NCBI GenBank assembly: GCA_944321505.1
Contig: CALULN010000019.1
Location: 1-57,377 of the forward strand
From: Candidatus Methanomethylophilaceae archaeon
Lineage (GTDB): Archaea > Thermoplasmatota > Thermoplasmata > Methanomassiliicoccales > Methanomethylophilaceae
Length of the DNA stretch: 57,377 nucleotides
Direction: 5' to 3'
The position numbers were made by a program, and so were the translations under genes. Below are positions 26,002 through 31,948 of this stretch, one piece after another; position 1 is the stretch's first letter; the number at the start of each line of letters is the position of its first letter. Under the pieces are notes generated by a model. It did no database searches and was not told the DNA's origin. It was given only the letters and a program-made list of their open reading frames with translations.

Positions 26002-26472
26002 ATGGTAGATACTGTCGAGGCATTGGTAGACGGAGGCAGGGCCTCCGCAGGGCCTCCCCTCGGACCCGCTCTCGGGCCGAAGGGTGTGAACATCGGTCAG
26101 ATCATCGCGGCCATCAACGACAAGACGAAAGCCTTCGCCGGAATGAAGGTCCCCGTGAAGATCCTGATCGCGGACGACAAGTCCTTCGAGATCAAGGTCG
26201 GCACGCCCCCCATCTCCGCTCTGATCAAGGGAGAGCTCGGCATCGCCTCCGGATCCTCCAACGCCCGCACCACCAAGGTCGGAAACCTCTCTCTCGAGCA
26301 GGCCAAGAAGCTTGCCGACATGAAGAAGGACGACCTCCTCGGAGCGGACATGAAGGCCCGTGTCCTCGAGGTCGCAGGCAACTGCGTGTCCGTCGGAGTC
26401 ACCATCGACGGCAAGAACCCCAAGGACTTCCAGAAGGACGTCAAGGCCGGCCTCTACGACGGCCAGTTCTGA
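26002..26472 (+). CDS. rpl11: Large ribosomal subunit protein L11 (uL11)
   Basis: 156 residues. ALVDGGRASAGPPLGPALGP KGVNIGQ is the conserved N-domain, which binds factors; the C-domain ending GNCVSVGVTIDGKNPKDFQK binds the GTPase-centre RNA. The gap to spt5 is five bases. In most archaea rpl1 follows directly; here two hairpins and a 2.2-kb insertion intervene. Confidence 0.96.
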   Translation: MVDTVEALVDGGRASAGPPLGPALGPKGVNIGQIIAAINDKTKAFAGMKVPVKILIADDKSFEIKVGTPPISALIKGELGIASGSSNARTTKVGNLSLEQAKKLADMKKDDLLGADMKARVLEVAGNCVSVGVTIDGKNPKDFQKDVKAGLYDGQF

Positions 26473-26479
26473 AACCCCC

Positions 26480-26525
26480 CGCGGGCCTTCAGCCCGCGAT
26501 GTTCTCCGGGGGCACCGCCCCCGGA
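26480..26525 (+). terminator. Two GC-rich hairpins after rpl11
   Basis: CGCGGGC-CTTCA-GCCCGCG (26480-26498) and TCCGGGGGC-ACC-GCCCCCGGA (26505-26525) are perfect stems of 7 and 9 bp just after the rpl11 stop. No T-run follows, so they may act as RNA 3'-end stabilisers or separators rather than simple terminators. Confidence 0.5.
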
Positions 26526-26546
26526 CACACCTTCGTTCGAAGGCAT

Positions 26547-27040
26547 CTATTTATACTCCGCAACGAATGGTATGTTTTGCGCGGTGCGGAAGGCGGCGCA
26601 GACCCTGATGTGTTCATGCACGGCTTCGAGGGCGAGGCTTGCCGGCTGTCCGGATCGCGTCGCAGGATCCCCATTCCCGACGGCTCCGCACGAAGCGGAG
26701 GGGAGGAGCGGGGATGGAAGCAGCTGTGACATCCTCGCGATGTGGCGCGCGGTGCCGGGTGACGGCCCCGCGGCGCAGCGGCCGGGACCTGGAATCGAAT
26801 AGAACCCCGTTATACGGGGGCGCCGCGGATGCGGCGACGGTCTACCTCGGTCGTCTTCGGGAGGGTGCGACGGCGCATCCTCGGCCGGTCGGGTCGTGAG
26901 ACACCCGGGCCCGTTGAAGGGCTCCCGGCGCGGAGGGGGGCAGGCGGCCATGCGCTCTCGCGGGCCGCGGTGCCTGAAGCCGCGATCACAGCTGCTTCAA
27001 ACAGTTTGGGATTTTGGTGTCGGCCAGCTCCTCGTTCTGC
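26547..27040 (+). ncRNA. Candidate structured RNA between rpl11 and the Fic gene
   Basis: About 500 bp without a convincing ORF but very GC-rich with many hairpins. CTCCGC-ACGAA-GCGGAG is nested within ATCCCC...GGGGAT near 26670-26720; CCCCG-TTATA-CGGGG and GCCGCGGATGCGGC lie near 26800-26840; more occur later. A box ctatttatac (26547-26556) would start transcription at about 26578, directly at GCGCGGTGCGG. The length fits SRP or RNase P RNA, but I cannot find the GGAAAGUC/ACAGAA boxes of RNase P or a convincing SRP54-binding loop. A 76-residue ORF from ATG 26572 exists but has protein-unlike composition. Confidence 0.4.
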
Positions 27041-27093
27041 TAACTTTGCATAACTTTGCATAACTTTGCATTCTCGTGTAAAGTGTAAAGTTA
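27041..27093. repeat. Direct repeat upstream of the Fic gene (left copy)
   Basis: Three tandem TAACTTTGCA units (27041-27070), then TTCTCGTGTAAAGTGTAAAGTTA. Bases 27052-27093 are identical to 28389-28430. Inside, AACTTT... and ...AAAGTT face each other, so it can also act as an operator-like inverted repeat at the promoter position of the Fic gene. Confidence 0.9.
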
Positions 27094-27125
27094 ATATTCC
27101 TGCTCTTTGTTTTTGTAATGTGAAG

Positions 27126-28400
27126 ATGCCAGAGCAGGCACCGGACCCGAAAGATCTCCTGTCAAGAGGCCGTGTGAATTGGTCTCACAAGACCATGGAG
27201 TTGGCTAAGGAGTACAACGGCAGGTATCTCCACTGGTCAGACCTGGAGTATAGGGATGTAGGTCCGGATTCCAGAGAGATCCTCTGGGCTCTTATGAAGA
27301 TTCTTAGGGAGGGAACCATTAGGGAGGTAGAACTTCGCGATCTGGTCATAAGGTACAATATCACCGACAACGCCCAGCGCATCCTTCATGATTTGGATAT
27401 GCGCATCTTGTCGGGACTCGTTCCTAGCAGTAAGCTGGATGATAATAGACGTCTTTTGCTTACAGTGAGCTCTGTCATGGAAGAGTCCATAGCATCAAGT
27501 CAGTTGGAGGGAGCATCAACCACTACTAAGGCTGCGAAGAAGATGCTCCGCGAGAACACGGCACCGAAAAACAAGTCCGATCTCATGATTATCAACAACT
27601 ACAATGCCATGCGGTTTATTAAGGAACATTCTGGTGATGAACTCTCCCCCGATTTGATAAGGGAGATTCACTCCATTATCTCACGCGGTACACTTGACGA
27701 TGTCAGGTACGAGGGGAGGTTCAGGGACAACAACTCTATTGCTGTGCGCGATACGTTCAGTGGTGAGACGTACCATGATCCGCCAGATTTCGGCAGGATT
27801 CCAGGTTTGGTACAGGCATTGTGTGGGTTCGCGAATGATGACAGCGTCTTTGTTCATCCCATTGTGAAGGGGATCGTGTTGCATTTTGGACTCGCCTACA
27901 TCCATCCGTTCATGGATGGCAACGGGCGCGTGTCGAGATCCCTGTTTTACTGGTACATGCTGCGCAGCGGATATGCGTCGATAGAATACCTATCCATATC
28001 GAAGGTTATGAAGAGTCATCGCAGCAGGTATGACAATGCCTACCTTCTGTCAGAGACTGATGGCAATGACATCACCTACTTCATCAACTTCAATCTGGAT
28101 GCGGTATCTGAGGCCACTGATGTGTTTTTGAAATATGTCAGGTGCAAGATGGAGGAGGATGCCAAGACGTTAGAGGATCCCCGTATGTCCGGCCTCAGCA
28201 TACGTCAGAGAGACGTTCTTTCCGATCTCATGAACAATACCGAACCCATCGACGTTTATGAGTTGGCAGCGAAGTACATGGTCCATCCAGCTAGTATGCG
28301 CAGGGACCTCCAGAAGCTCGACGAGCTCGGAATGGTGAGGTTGGTGCGCATCGGACACAGGAATGCGTACCTTTACAACGACCAAGCCAACTTTGCATAA
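27126..28400 (+). CDS. Fic domain protein with C-terminal winged helix
   Basis: 424 residues from ATG 27126 (GTG 27120 is also possible). The Fic motif HPFMDGNGRVSR (260-271) is complete, so AMP or another NMP transfer to proteins is expected. An inhibitory helix motif SSQLEGA (124-130, Glu128) lies N-terminal, as in class II self-inhibited Fic enzymes. The last 70 residues form a winged helix (VYELAAKYMVHPASMRRDLQ), a common Fic-HTH layout. Codons are more A/T-rich than in the flanking ribosomal genes, pointing to transfer. Its stop TAA lies inside the downstream 42-bp repeat. Confidence 0.9.
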   Translation: MPEQAPDPKDLLSRGRVNWSHKTMELAKEYNGRYLHWSDLEYRDVGPDSREILWALMKILREGTIREVELRDLVIRYNITDNAQRILHDLDMRILSGLVPSSKLDDNRRLLLTVSSVMEESIASSQLEGASTTTKAAKKMLRENTAPKNKSDLMIINNYNAMRFIKEHSGDELSPDLIREIHSIISRGTLDDVRYEGRFRDNNSIAVRDTFSGETYHDPPDFGRIPGLVQALCGFANDDSVFVHPIVKGIVLHFGLAYIHPFMDGNGRVSRSLFYWYMLRSGYASIEYLSISKVMKSHRSRYDNAYLLSETDGNDITYFINFNLDAVSEATDVFLKYVRCKMEEDAKTLEDPRMSGLSIRQRDVLSDLMNNTEPIDVYELAAKYMVHPASMRRDLQKLDELGMVRLVRIGHRNAYLYNDQANFA

Positions 28401-28430
28401 CTTTGCATTCTCGTGTAAAGTGTAAAGTTA
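28389..28430. repeat. Direct repeat downstream of the Fic gene (right copy)
   Basis: 42 bases identical to 27052-27093. It supplies the last codons (ANFA) and stop of the Fic gene. Exact identity over non-coding and coding context suggests a recent cassette insertion or recombination site. Confidence 0.9.
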
Positions 28431-28672
28431 TGCAGGATGACCCGTGTTCGTTGAACGGATTCTCCTCATGAAATGTCTCCATGCGGTGGCGGAGGTCATG
28501 AAGTAATGCGGATGGGTGAGACAGACGCACGTCCCCTGCTCCGGGCAGTCCGGTGCGATCGTCATTTCGCGCCTGTCAGCGAATCGGTTATCTTTAAATA
28601 CAGCCCCTGTATTCGAAGCATCCACTTGTAGGAGAGCCGCAAGGTTCGTTTGCACTACGAGGAGGAATAGAT
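28431..28672 (+). promoter_or_regulatory. Promoter and leader of rpl1-rplP0-rpl12
   Basis: 28431-28585 shows no gene. A box atctttaaatac (28588-28599) predicts transcription near 28622, giving a leader of about 50 nt with GAGGAGGAAT just before the TTG start. This promoter would free rpl1 from the upstream rpl11 unit. L1 binding in the leader is known in other archaea, but I cannot identify the site here. Confidence 0.55.
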
Positions 28673-29311
28673 TTGGCAGATAAGTCAACCGTTATGGCTG
28701 TGCAGAACGCACTCGAGAGTGCGAAGAAGCGCAATTTTGTTGAAACGGTTGAGTTGGCCATCAATCTCAAGGACATCGACCTGACCATACCGAAGAACCG
28801 TATCCAGGATGACATCATCCTGCCCTACGGACGCGGCAGGCCGGTCCACGTCTGCGTGATTGGTGGTGGCGAACTTGCCTTGAAAGCCAAAGACGTTGCC
28901 GACACTGTGATCTCCCCTGAAGAGCTTCAGGCGATTGCAGACGACAAGAAGCAGGCCAAGAAGATCGCGAACGACACCGATTACTTCATCGCCGAAGCCC
29001 CCCTCATGGCGGTCGTCGGTAAGAGGCTCGGTACCGTCCTCGGTCCCCGCGGAAAGATGCCGAAACCCATCCCTCCGGGAGCAGACCCGAAGGGCATGAT
29101 CGACAACCTCCGCAAGACCGTTTCTGTCAGGACTAAAGACAGGATAACCTTCCACGCACCCGTGGGAACCGTCGACATGTCCCCCGAAGAGCTGGCTGAG
29201 AACATCGAGACCGTCATCAAGCGTGTCGAGCTCAAGCTGGAGAAGGGGAGGATGAACATCGCTTCGTCCTACGTGAAGACCACCATGGGCAAGTCCGTGA
29301 GGTTGATCTGA
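28673..29311 (+). CDS. rpl1: Large ribosomal subunit protein L1 (uL1)
   Basis: 212 residues from TTG 28673, with a strong Shine-Dalgarno GAGGAGG eight bases upstream. KRNFVETVELAINLKDIDL at the start and GPRGKMPKPIPPGADPKG in the middle are diagnostic of archaeal L1, which binds the L1 stalk of 23S rRNA and often its own mRNA. Followed after 12 bases by rplP0. Confidence 0.96.
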   Translation: MADKSTVMAVQNALESAKKRNFVETVELAINLKDIDLTIPKNRIQDDIILPYGRGRPVHVCVIGGGELALKAKDVADTVISPEELQAIADDKKQAKKIANDTDYFIAEAPLMAVVGKRLGTVLGPRGKMPKPIPPGADPKGMIDNLRKTVSVRTKDRITFHAPVGTVDMSPEELAENIETVIKRVELKLEKGRMNIASSYVKTTMGKSVRLI

Positions 29312-29323
29312 GGAGGTTCGTAA

Positions 29324-30325
29324 ATGGCACACGTCGCAGCTTGGAAGAAAGATCTGGTGAACGAGCTCGCCCAGGAGATGGTGTCCTCGCCCGTCGTGGC
29401 CGTCGTCGACGTCCATGGCATCGGCGGACAGCAGATCCAGTCGATGAGGGCCGGACTCAGAGGCCACGCTAAGCTCAAGATGACGAAGAACAACCTGATT
29501 CTCCTCGCCATCGAGAAGGCGGCCGAGTCCAAGCCCGAGATCGCAGGGCTCACCGAGGCGGTCTACGGCCAGTGCGCGGTTGTGTCCACCGACATCAACC
29601 CGTTCAAGCTCTTCGCTAAGCTGGAGTCCACCAAGACCCCCGCAGCCGCGAAGCCCGGAGAGATCGCCCCGTTCGACATCGTGGTCCCCAAGGGGCCCAC
29701 CCCGTTCGGACCCGGCCCGATCATCGGAGATCTTCAGAAATTGGGCCTTCCCGCCGCCATCGACGGCGGGAAGATAGTAGTCAAGAAGGATACCACGCTG
29801 GTCAAGGAGGGCGAGCCCGTCCCGGCCAACGTCGCAGCGATGCTCCCGAAGCTGGAGATCCTGCCCATGATCGTGGGAATGGACCTTAGGGCCTGCTACG
29901 AGGATGGCGTGATCTACAAGAAGGACGTCCTGGACATCCCCGAGAACTACTACAGAGACATGTTCGCTACGGCCGCATTCAACGCCCGCGCTCTCGGCGT
30001 CGCGATCGCCTTCCCCGCGAAGGAGACCATCGTGCCGCTGCTGCAGAAGGCGTTCAGGGAGGCTCTGGGTCTCTCGATATCGGCCGCGATACCAACCAAA
30101 GAGAACATAGAGATGCTCCTCGCGAAGGCGGATGCTCAGATGCTCGCCGTCGCATCTGCTTCCGGCTACACCAACGACGCCATCGCCGCCAGGCTCTCCA
30201 ACGCCGCGGCGGCCGCGCCCGTTGCAGCTGCTGAGGCCCCGGCCGCAGCCGCGGAGCCCGAGGAAGAGGAGGAGGAGGTCAGCGAGGAGGAAGCCGCCGC
30301 CGGCCTCTCTGCATTGTTCGGATAA
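29324..30325 (+). CDS. rplP0: Acidic ribosomal protein P0 (uL10)
   Basis: 333 residues. An rRNA-binding N-domain (KMTKNNLILLAIEKA), then helices that bind P1 dimers, an Ala/Glu-rich hinge and the C-terminal [13 protein letters not shown] tail, which it shares with P1 and which recruits translation GTPases. GAGGAGG precedes ATG 29324. Confidence 0.96.
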   Translation: MAHVAAWKKDLVNELAQEMVSSPVVAVVDVHGIGGQQIQSMRAGLRGHAKLKMTKNNLILLAIEKAAESKPEIAGLTEAVYGQCAVVSTDINPFKLFAKLESTKTPAAAKPGEIAPFDIVVPKGPTPFGPGPIIGDLQKLGLPAAIDGGKIVVKKDTTLVKEGEPVPANVAAMLPKLEILPMIVGMDLRACYEDGVIYKKDVLDIPENYYRDMFATAAFNARALGVAIAFPAKETIVPLLQKAFREALGLSISAAIPTKENIEMLLAKADAQMLAVASASGYTNDAIAARLSNAAAAAPVAAAEAPAAAAEPEEEEEEVSEEEAAAGLSALFG

Positions 30326-30341: not shown

Positions 30342-30656
30342 ATGGAGTACATCTACAGCGCAATGGTTCTTTACGCAGCCGGCAAGGACATCACCGAGGA
30401 CGCTATCGCAGCCATCCTCAAGGCCGCCGGTGTCGAGCCTGACGCAGCCAAGATCAAGGCACTGACCGCATCCCTCGAGGGAGTCGACATCGCCGACGCC
30501 ATCGCGTCCGCGTCCGTCATGGCCGCTGCCCCCGCAGCAGCCGGAGCCGCTCCCGCAGCCGCCGCCGACGCTCCCGCAGCCGCCGCTGAGGAGCCCGAGG
30601 AGGAGGCCGTCTCCGAGGAAGAGGCAGCAGCCGGTCTCAGCGCCCTGTTCGGGTGA
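30342..30656 (+). CDS. rpl12: Ribosomal protein P1/L12 (archaeal type)
   Basis: Encodes 104 residues from ATG 30342. The N-domain [20 protein letters not shown] dimerises and binds P0; an Ala/Pro hinge follows and the tail [14 protein letters not shown] matches P0. It ends the stalk operon. Confidence 0.95.
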
Positions 30657-30733: not shown

Positions 30734-31948
30734 TCAGTTCTCGAGGAGCCAGTCGGCGATCCTCACGACCCTGATTCCGTCGATGTTGTCTGCGGGATAC
30801 TTATCAAGGGTGATGATCGTCTTCGGGAAGTTGTCGTCGATGGCCCTGAGGGGCCTCAGTTCACGCTTCAGCGTCTCGGGGTCGGCAAGGCTGAGGCACA
30901 CCTGCCAGTACATGATGGCATTAATCGGGCCGGTGACGAAATCCACTTCATACTGTCCGACAGAGCATGTGGATGCCGTCCCGTATCTGACAGACAGCTC
31001 GTTGAATACGATGTTCTCTAGGATGCCGTCCAGATCTGTTTCTGAATACGGTATCATAATGTTCCTGAGTCCGATGTCTGTGGCGTAGAATTTGTCATTG
31101 GTGCGGAGGTAGTCTTTGGATTTGCTGTCTTTTCTCTTCGCCCTTTCGAACAGCATTGCGCCTTCTAGCATGGAGATATACGAGTCTATGGTTTCCGGAC
31201 GTACTTTCAGTCCGCTGCTCGAAAGGTAGTTGGTGGCAGAACGGACGGATGTTCTGTCGCCAATATTCTTCATTAGGAATCTACAGAGGTTGGATATTGC
31301 GGAGGTGTTGCGAATGGAATGTCTGTCTGTAACATCTTTTGTGTATACTGTGTTGTAAATTCCGGACAGCATGTCATTGGTGAGATCTGGAATTGTGTCC
31401 TCCATCCGCGCTACTGCTGGGAATCCGCCACGACGGATGTATTCTGCGAAGAGATCATCACGGCTCTTCCCTGGATTCCTGAATTTAACGTACTCGGAGA
31501 ACGTCAGCGGGCGGACGCGTATTTCCAAACATCTCCCAGATAGACGAGTGGACAATTCCGATGACAGCATCTGTGAGTTTGATCCGGTGACGTAGATGTC
31601 GGCTTTTTTGATGAACAGAGTGGAGACTGCAATCTCCCAGTTGGGAATCGTCTGCACTTCATCTAAGAACACGTAGGATCCTGGAATCGAACTCAGATTC
31701 TTCGACACCAAATCTAGGATGTCGTCGCAGGTCCTGATACCTAGATCACTCTCCTCAAGATTCACGTACAGCATCCTGTCCTCAGGGACGCCTTCGGCTT
31801 TCAGCTCGTCCATGAATGCCAATAAAAGCGTTGATTTCCCACATCTTCTGATTCCTGTCAGACCTTTGATGACATCTGATCCCCTAGCCGCTCTGAGTTT
31901 CGATAAATATGTCTCGCGGGGGATGATGGTGGATGTGGATTCACGCAT
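30734..31948 (-). CDS. Accessory AAA ATPase, AAA_14/DUF4143 type (copy C)
   Basis: 404 residues. Walker A TGIRRCGKST, Walker B VFLDEVQTIPNWE, sensor TGSNSQML, and GRCLEIRVRPLTFSEYVKF; the C-terminal nuclease-like motif is YEVDFVTGP...YWQVCLS. Same subgroup as copy A at 673-1866 (RRCGKST, TGSNS.ML, LSGR..EI). Codons are A/T-richer than the ribosomal genes next to it. ATG 31948 lies about 27 nt after tttaaat (31973-31979), so it is likely leaderless. Confidence 0.85.
   Translation of the reverse strand: MRESTSTIIPRETYLSKLRAARGSDVIKGLTGIRRCGKSTLLLAFMDELKAEGVPEDRMLYVNLEESDLGIRTCDDILDLVSKNLSSIPGSYVFLDEVQTIPNWEIAVSTLFIKKADIYVTGSNSQMLSSELSTRLSGRCLEIRVRPLTFSEYVKFRNPGKSRDDLFAEYIRRGGFPAVARMEDTIPDLTNDMLSGIYNTVYTKDVTDRHSIRNTSAISNLCRFLMKNIGDRTSVRSATNYLSSSGLKVRPETIDSYISMLEGAMLFERAKRKDSKSKDYLRTNDKFYATDIGLRNIMIPYSETDLDGILENIVFNELSVRYGTASTCSVGQYEVDFVTGPINAIMYWQVCLSLADPETLKRELRPLRAIDDNFPKTIITLDKYPADNIDGIRVVRIADWLLEN

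What the first reader, a model, noticed from the sequence alone, without database searches (positions are those of the whole stretch)
26473..28672. Stalk ribosomal operon broken by a 2.2-kb insertion with a Fic cassette
The usual archaeal order rpl11-rpl1-rplP0-rpl12 is split between rpl11 and rpl1. The insert holds GC hairpins, a structured segment and a Fic gene between exact 42-bp repeats. rpl1 has its own TATA box and a TTG start. A toxin-like AMP transferase in the middle of a ribosomal operon is unusual.
Basis: partly seen in the sequence, partly recalled or inferred. Interest (0 to 1): 0.6.

Follow-up and report, generated by a model that had tools for sequence, protein, structure and literature searches.

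The report
Fic gene cassette between operator repeats
An archaeon carries, next to its ribosomal-stalk genes, a one-gene toxin-like (probably antiviral) Fic cassette whose own regulatory DNA site is duplicated on both sides; relatives show the same kind of gene present or absent between such sites, with a single copy left where it is absent.

Summary
In detail: rpl11 and rpl1 are 2,200 bp apart, and a Fic gene lies between exact 42-bp direct repeats. The "broken operon" does not. rpl1 has its own TATA-like box and a covarying L1-type leader throughout the order, even where the gap is about 90 bp, and in this family the gap varies freely (157 to 3,708 bp) with unrelated cargo. No relative was found with fic at this site.

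The repeats are the interesting part. Fic is a class II SoFic-like enzyme with a C-terminal winged helix. The upstream repeat (phased 10-bp half-sites plus inverted half-sites) abuts the fic TATA-like box, as an autorepressor's operator would. Of 42 complete fic-wHTH loci in the order, 14 have matched operator copies on both sides; motifs differ between loci but match within each. Homology between such loci usually ends at the outer repeat edges. Relatives carry solo repeats without fic, two of them at a site where other genomes hold repeat-fic-repeat. Among 289 non-fic control genes one had this layout: a Schlafen/AlbA-wHTH gene beside a solo repeat. A gut "Bacteriophage sp." record shows it around a fic gene.

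Best reading: a self-repressed, defence-like cassette gained and lost by recombination between duplicated operators. Nearby lies a possibly structured, unmatched RNA (26572-27016).

The parts
26002..26472 (+). rpl11 (ribosomal protein L11), left neighbour
   Evidence: Pfam Ribosomal_L11_N and Ribosomal_L11
26480..26543 (+). GC-rich hairpins just after the rpl11 stop codon (probable 3' end signal; inference)
   Evidence: fold -40.7 kcal/mol for 26473-26545
26550..26557 (+). TATA-like box in front of the structured segment
   Evidence: TTTATACT
26572..27016 (+). candidate structured non-coding RNA, about 445 nt, no Rfam match; shared only with G003 (75% identity), also in its rpl11-rpl1 gap. Not part of the Fic cassette
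27042..27093 (+). upstream operator-like repeat R1: three AACTTTGCAT units then inverted TGTAAAG half-sites; its last 42 bp (27052-27093) are repeated exactly downstream
27091..27098 (+). TATA-like box of fic, overlapping the end of R1
   Evidence: TTAATATT
27126..28400 (+). fic: class II SoFic-like AMP-transferase, 424 aa; inhibitory motif SSQLEG (residues 124-129), Fic motif HPFMDGNGR (260-268), C-terminal winged helix (359-417)
28389..28430 (+). downstream repeat R2, identical to 27052-27093, contains the fic stop codon
28593..28600 (+). TATA-like box of the rpl1-P0-rpl12 unit
28625..28661 (+). rpl1 mRNA leader hairpin, GTAGGAGAGC...GTTC...GCACTAC; covarying across the order; probable L1 autoregulation site
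28673..29311 (+). rpl1 (ribosomal protein L1), TTG start
   Evidence: Pfam Ribosomal_L1
29324..30325 (+). rplP0 (L10/P0)
30342..30656 (+). rpl12 (P1/P2-type stalk protein)

Best explanation
The 1.39-kb stretch R1-fic-R2 (27042-28430) is a self-contained gene cassette. Fic is a self-inhibited AMP-transferase of the SoFic type (class II), probably used in antiviral defence. Its C-terminal winged helix binds R1, a phased array of half-sites next to the TATA-like box, and represses fic (inferred from position, covariation and the CccR precedent). A second copy of the operator lies at the stop codon. The two direct copies let the cassette be lost by recombination between them, leaving one R, and let it be acquired at a place that already holds R or by exchange of flanking DNA (the comparative pattern is shown for other motif types; the enzyme and direction are inferred). 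In this species the cassette sits in the rpl11|rpl1 spacer. That spacer tolerates insertions because rpl1-P0-rpl12 already has its own promoter and leader.
For: Class II Fic: intact HPFMDGNGR and SSQLEG, AlphaFold model pLDDT 88.6, best PDB match SoFic 3zcn, PADLOC SoFic 1.3e-44. Operator: the upstream copy ends 25-32 bp before the start codon in most of the 14 loci (15-49 over all) and is followed by a TATA-like sequence; operator similarity tracks wHTH identity beyond catalytic-domain identity (partial r 0.30; 0.37 for pairs under 70% identical; permutation p <0.0005 on the full set). The Fic-HTH protein CccR was shown to bind 10-bp repeats in its own promoter and repress itself (PMC9755527). 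Pairing: 14 of 42 loci score above the mismatched-loci 95% level of 10.5, weakest accepted 18; 1 of 289 non-fic genes does so. Boundary: between loci in different genomes, DNA homology runs from about -58/-78 to +18/+60, near the outer R edges. Gain/loss: solo R without fic in several genomes. G111 and G019 have R-fic-R where G101 and G098 have one R. For G111 vs G101 both flanks excluding R are homologous: left score 118 vs null max 27, right p <0.0005. G098 R-fic-R vs G094 solo R have a syntenic left side. L108 and L117 are 98% identical for 2.75 kb up to the downstream R, then unrelated.
Against: No empty site with a solo R of this window's own motif was found; G003's spacer has no R. Most fic-wHTH loci (28 of 42) lack a downstream copy, and none of the eight loci from other families of the order has one. 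No recombinase is linked to the cassette. The right-flank homology at the filled/solo pair is short (about 66 bp). One pair (L091/L092) shares DNA beyond R. Direction (loss or gain) was not established. Binding of R by Fic and defence activity are untested. The genomes are mostly draft assemblies.
Confidence: 0.6

Rival explanations
1. The downstream repeat is purely regulatory. Two operators flank fic so that bound Fic-wHTH loops the DNA or blocks RNA polymerase at the end of the gene. Solo repeats are decayed loci that lost fic by ordinary deletion, not through repeat recombination.
For: A sister clade keeps two operator copies both upstream (L101, L102, L104, L105), so paired operators can serve regulation alone. 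Copies stay alike within a locus while motifs differ between loci. Some solo sites still hold fic remnants (G063, G095 C35).
Against: Solo R at G101 and G098 has neither fic nor remnant, and at G101 both flanks match a filled site. Homology between loci stops near the outer R edges.
Confidence: 0.25
2. The repeats are the terminal or target repeats of an ordinary mobile element that once carried fic (degenerate transposon or integrated plasmid).
For: Direct repeats flank the gene, two genera share a 98% identical copy (L091/L092), and tRNA-like sequences lie next to some fic loci.
Against: No transposase or integrase lies inside. The repeats are operator-like, differ between loci, and keep the same orientation and a similar distance to the fic start codon. 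No fic relative was found in IMG/VR by the peptide-pattern search.
Confidence: 0.08
3. The Fic gene was inserted into, and disrupts, a co-transcribed rpl11-rpl1-P0-rpl12 operon and so affects ribosome stalk supply.
For: In other families of the order the gap is only 88-129 bp, which would allow read-through.
Against: A TATA-like box plus a covarying L1-type leader precede rpl1 across the order, including short-gap genomes. The family already has long gaps with other genes.
Confidence: 0.05

Closest known systems
SoFic / class II Fic AMP-transferases (Shewanella SoFic, PDB 3zcn/3eqx; reported as single-gene anti-phage defence)
   Same: Fic motif, N-terminal inhibitory motif, C-terminal winged helix, overall fold
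   Different: Far below the NCBIfam SoFic equivalog cut-off (49 vs 550 bits); flanked by duplicated operators. Term searches of an archaeal SoFic survey and an E. coli Sofic study found no mention of such repeats
CccR, a Fic-HTH effector of Yersinia pseudotuberculosis that represses its own gene (PMC9755527)
   Same: Fic plus HTH; 10-bp operator half-sites in its own promoter
   Different: The passages read describe one promoter operator; it is a secreted effector
Gene cassettes and excisable loci with flanking repeats (integron cassettes; phase-variable restriction loci such as tvr, PMC6265443, abstract only)
   Same: Presence/absence of genetic material at recombination sites
   Different: Here the repeat is the gene's own operator, the gene has its own promoter, and no integrase or recombinase is linked
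Archaeal L1 (rpl1-P0-rpl12) unit with an L1-binding mRNA site
   Same: rpl1 leader hairpin upstream of the start codon; autoregulation known for archaeal L1 (own knowledge)
   Different: No difference noted; it explains why the spacer can be interrupted

Membership tests
Class II Fic AMP-transferase, SoFic-like | Catalytic motif HPFx(D/E)GN(G/K)R | tested here: met
   HPFMDGNGR, residues 260-268
Class II Fic AMP-transferase, SoFic-like | Inhibitory (S/T)xxxE(G/N) motif N-terminal to the Fic core, same chain | tested here: met
   SSQLEG, residues 124-129; S124, S125, E128 and G129 invariant in 32 homologues
Class II Fic AMP-transferase, SoFic-like | C-terminal winged-helix domain and overall SoFic fold | tested here: met
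   helices 359-370, 377-384, 388-400 and hairpin 404-417; best PDB match 3zcn E 2.9e-11
SoFic in the strict sense (NCBIfam NF046030 equivalog) | Score at or above the curated cut-off | tested here: not met
   49.2 vs 550 bits
SoFic anti-phage system | Protects cells from viruses | not testable with these tools
   needs infection assays
Type II toxin-antitoxin (class I Fic with separate antitoxin) | Small antitoxin gene adjacent to fic | tested here: not met
   No convincing ORF between R1 and fic or R2 and rpl1; inhibitory motif is in the same chain
Insertion sequence / transposon | Transposase gene or terminal inverted repeats | tested here: not met
   Only fic lies between the direct repeats
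Integron gene cassette | attC site and integrase; usually promoterless | tested here: inconclusive
   A TATA-like box lies at 27091 and no integrase was noted nearby, but attC and a distant integrase were not searched
Operator-flanked cassette (class proposed here) | Matched operator copies on both sides, and a solo operator at empty sites | tested here: inconclusive
   Matched copies met in the window; solo sites shown for two other motif types but none found for this window's own motif

The most novel reading that the evidence does not exclude
There is a general class of minimal immune cassettes: one gene encoding an effector with its own C-terminal winged helix, bounded by duplicated copies of its own operator, which serve both as repressor site and as the recombination site for gain and loss, without a dedicated recombinase. 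Fic genes of this archaeal order, a Schlafen/AlbA-wHTH gene and a fic gene of a gut phage record would be members.
Probability: 0.3. Interest if true: 0.75.

Novelty: new variant of a known kind. Interest (0 to 1): 0.55.

Why it matters
Single-gene defence systems come and go quickly between genomes, yet how a lone gene with no transposase moves or is lost is usually unknown. Here the regulatory site itself marks the ends of the unit, and single leftover sites record its absence. If confirmed, searching for matched operator pairs around wHTH-bearing effectors would find such cassettes without knowing the effector family. It also corrects the picture of the stalk operon: in this order rpl1 most likely starts its own unit, and in this family the spacer before it accepts accessory genes (AbiE, ParE, PDC-S01/S27 candidates, transporters, metabolic genes).

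Tried and rejected
(1) Structured segment as RNase P or SRP RNA: rejected, both are elsewhere in the genome; no Rfam family matched it at its gathering score, and at E<=10 only weak, implausible eukaryotic hits appeared. (2) Wider homologues of that RNA: a model of its 3' part found only G000 and G003 among 102 family genomes; an exact 22-base pattern found only G003 in genome contigs and none in IMG/VR; no plasmid match. Compensatory changes did not exceed block shuffles (11 vs mean 8), only the folding energy did (z -3.4), so its structure is moderately supported. (3) Fic in viral contigs: none by peptide patterns. (4) A general scan for flanked genes returned 16 ribosomal-stalk artefacts, because P0 and L12 share C-termini; only the Schlafen/AlbA gene remained. 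(5) Eight fic loci on bacterial plasmids showed no flanking repeat above the shuffle range. (7) A first try of family searches failed from a wrong frame, and one script failed on an import.

Full report
What is there. The window belongs to the order Methanomassiliicoccales (its congener G003 is CASEZY010000002.1, "uncultured Methanomassiliicoccales archaeon"). Between rpl11 (ends 26472) and rpl1 (TTG at 28673) lie 2,200 bp: GC hairpins (26480-26543), a segment that may be a structured RNA (26572-27016), the repeat R1 (27042-27093), fic (27126-28400), the repeat R2 (28389-28430) and the rpl1 promoter and leader.

The operon is not broken. I fetched the rpl1 upstream regions of 40 relatives. In other families of the order the rpl11-rpl1 gap is 88-129 bp. 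In the window's family it runs from 157 to 3,708 bp; for several genomes rpl11 is not within the DNA fetched, in some because the contig ends. Contents differ: AAA_14/DUF4143, an ABC transporter, AbiEi/AbiEii, ParE, SAICAR synthetase, flippases, nucleotide-sugar enzymes. In front of rpl1 the sampled genomes have an A/T-rich TATA-like box and the leader GTAGGAGRG...GCTCG...ACTAC (one contig-edge locus was too short to show the box). Its hairpin covaries: A-U to G-C in 11 of 38 sequences at one pair, U-A to C-G in 9 at another. That resembles the archaeal L1 autoregulation site (own knowledge). So rpl1-P0-rpl12 is most likely its own unit across the order.

The Fic protein. It has the intact Fic motif, a class II inhibitory motif and a C-terminal winged helix; its model (pLDDT 88.6) is closest to SoFic 3zcn. 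PADLOC's SoFic model matches at 1.3e-44, while the NCBIfam SoFic equivalog cut-off is not reached. SoFic-type genes are known in archaea and their phylogeny points to transfers from bacteria (PMC12988326); E. coli Sofic acts as an AMPylating abortive-infection protein (PMC12249575). Defence is therefore a reasonable inference, untested here.

The repeats as operators. R1 consists of AACTTTGCAT units in 10-bp phase followed by inverted TGTAAAG half-sites, its end overlapping the fic TATA-like box. Searches of 102 family and 147 order genomes found many fic relatives. At 42 complete loci I compared upstream and downstream DNA: 14 have matched copies (weakest accepted score 18) against a mismatched-locus 95% level of 10.5. 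The highest mismatched score, 28.5, is best explained by loci that share a motif family. One further locus (L102, 17.5) was not counted because its match is far from the promoter. Motifs fall into types (AACTCTTCA, ACCCTACCAAT, AAAGTCAA, and singletons such as the window's). Operator similarity follows wHTH identity after allowing for the catalytic domain, as expected if the wHTH reads the operator; the catalytic domain also correlates, so shared ancestry contributes. CccR gives an experimental precedent.

The repeats as cassette ends. On the fic tree the flanked state needs 8 changes, clustered but not a single origin. Between flanked loci sharing a motif, nucleotide homology in all but one pair ends near the outer edges of the repeats although genomic contexts differ. 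Searching 102 genomes for two motif types gave the fic flanks plus solo repeats without fic. Inspection showed G101, G098, G095 (C38), G094 and G102 with no fic trace in the stretch around the solo repeat; G063 and G095 (C35) keep fic remnants; G118 lies at a contig end. At one site G111 and G019 hold R-fic-R and G101 and G098 hold one R. Left flanks outside R match strongly (118 for G111/G101, null max 27); right flanks match over about 66 bp (G111-G101 p <0.0005, G098-G101 p 0.001; G111-G098 alone is weak, p 0.12 against random windows). In another case G098 (R-fic-R, followed by a second SoFic gene) and G094 (solo R) share the left side over several kb but not the right.

Beyond Fic. The G094 solo R is next to a SLFN_AlbA_2/HATPase_c_4/wHTH gene that itself has a 50-bp operator-like repeat just before its start and another overlapping its stop codon. 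It was the only one of 289 non-fic genes with this layout. A 5-kb gut record filed as "Bacteriophage sp." (MT840011.1) has a fic gene (38% identity) flanked by matched inverted-repeat operators (score 31, shuffle max 13). Eight plasmid fic loci did not.

Limits. No solo R of the window's own motif is known, so for this species excision is inferred by analogy. I cannot tell loss from gain.

The structured segment. 26572-27016 is 75% identical to G003, begins after a TATA-like box in both, and folds better than block-shuffled alignments (z -3.4), but compensatory changes are not above shuffles. It was not found in the other four sampled congeners and is unmatched in Rfam. It may be a new lineage-specific RNA; it is separate from the Fic cassette because G003 has it without fic there.

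Noticed in passing
window 26572-27016: Candidate large structured non-coding RNA with its own TATA-like box, conserved only in the congener G003 at the same rpl11-rpl1 position, no Rfam match.
   Followed up: partly
window 28625-28661: rpl1 leader hairpin with covariation across the whole order, probably the L1 autoregulation site; no Rfam family reached its gathering score in the window.
   Followed up: partly
window 30734-31948 (-): AAA_14/DUF4143 gene right after rpl12 matching PADLOC candidate PDC-S01 (3e-134); similar genes sit inside the rpl11-rpl1 gap in G003 and G035.
   Followed up: partly
L155 7785-9290 (G094): SLFN_AlbA_2/HATPase_c_4/wHTH gene flanked by its own 50-bp operator-like direct repeats, the downstream one overlapping the stop codon; next to a solo fic repeat.
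   Followed up: partly
L154 11681-12826 (G098): A second, closer SoFic gene (PADLOC 5e-97) directly downstream of the R-fic-R cassette.
   Followed up: no
L161/L162: R-fic-R loci of two different genera are 98% identical over 1.75 kb, suggesting recent transfer or assembly contamination.
   Followed up: no
L101, L104: tRNA-like sequences lie directly downstream of fic in these loci, which have two operator copies upstream instead of one on each side.
   Followed up: no
L198 (MT840011.1): Fic gene in a 5-kb human-gut Bacteriophage sp. record with matched inverted-repeat operators on both sides and a promoter resembling the Bacteroidota type.
   Followed up: partly
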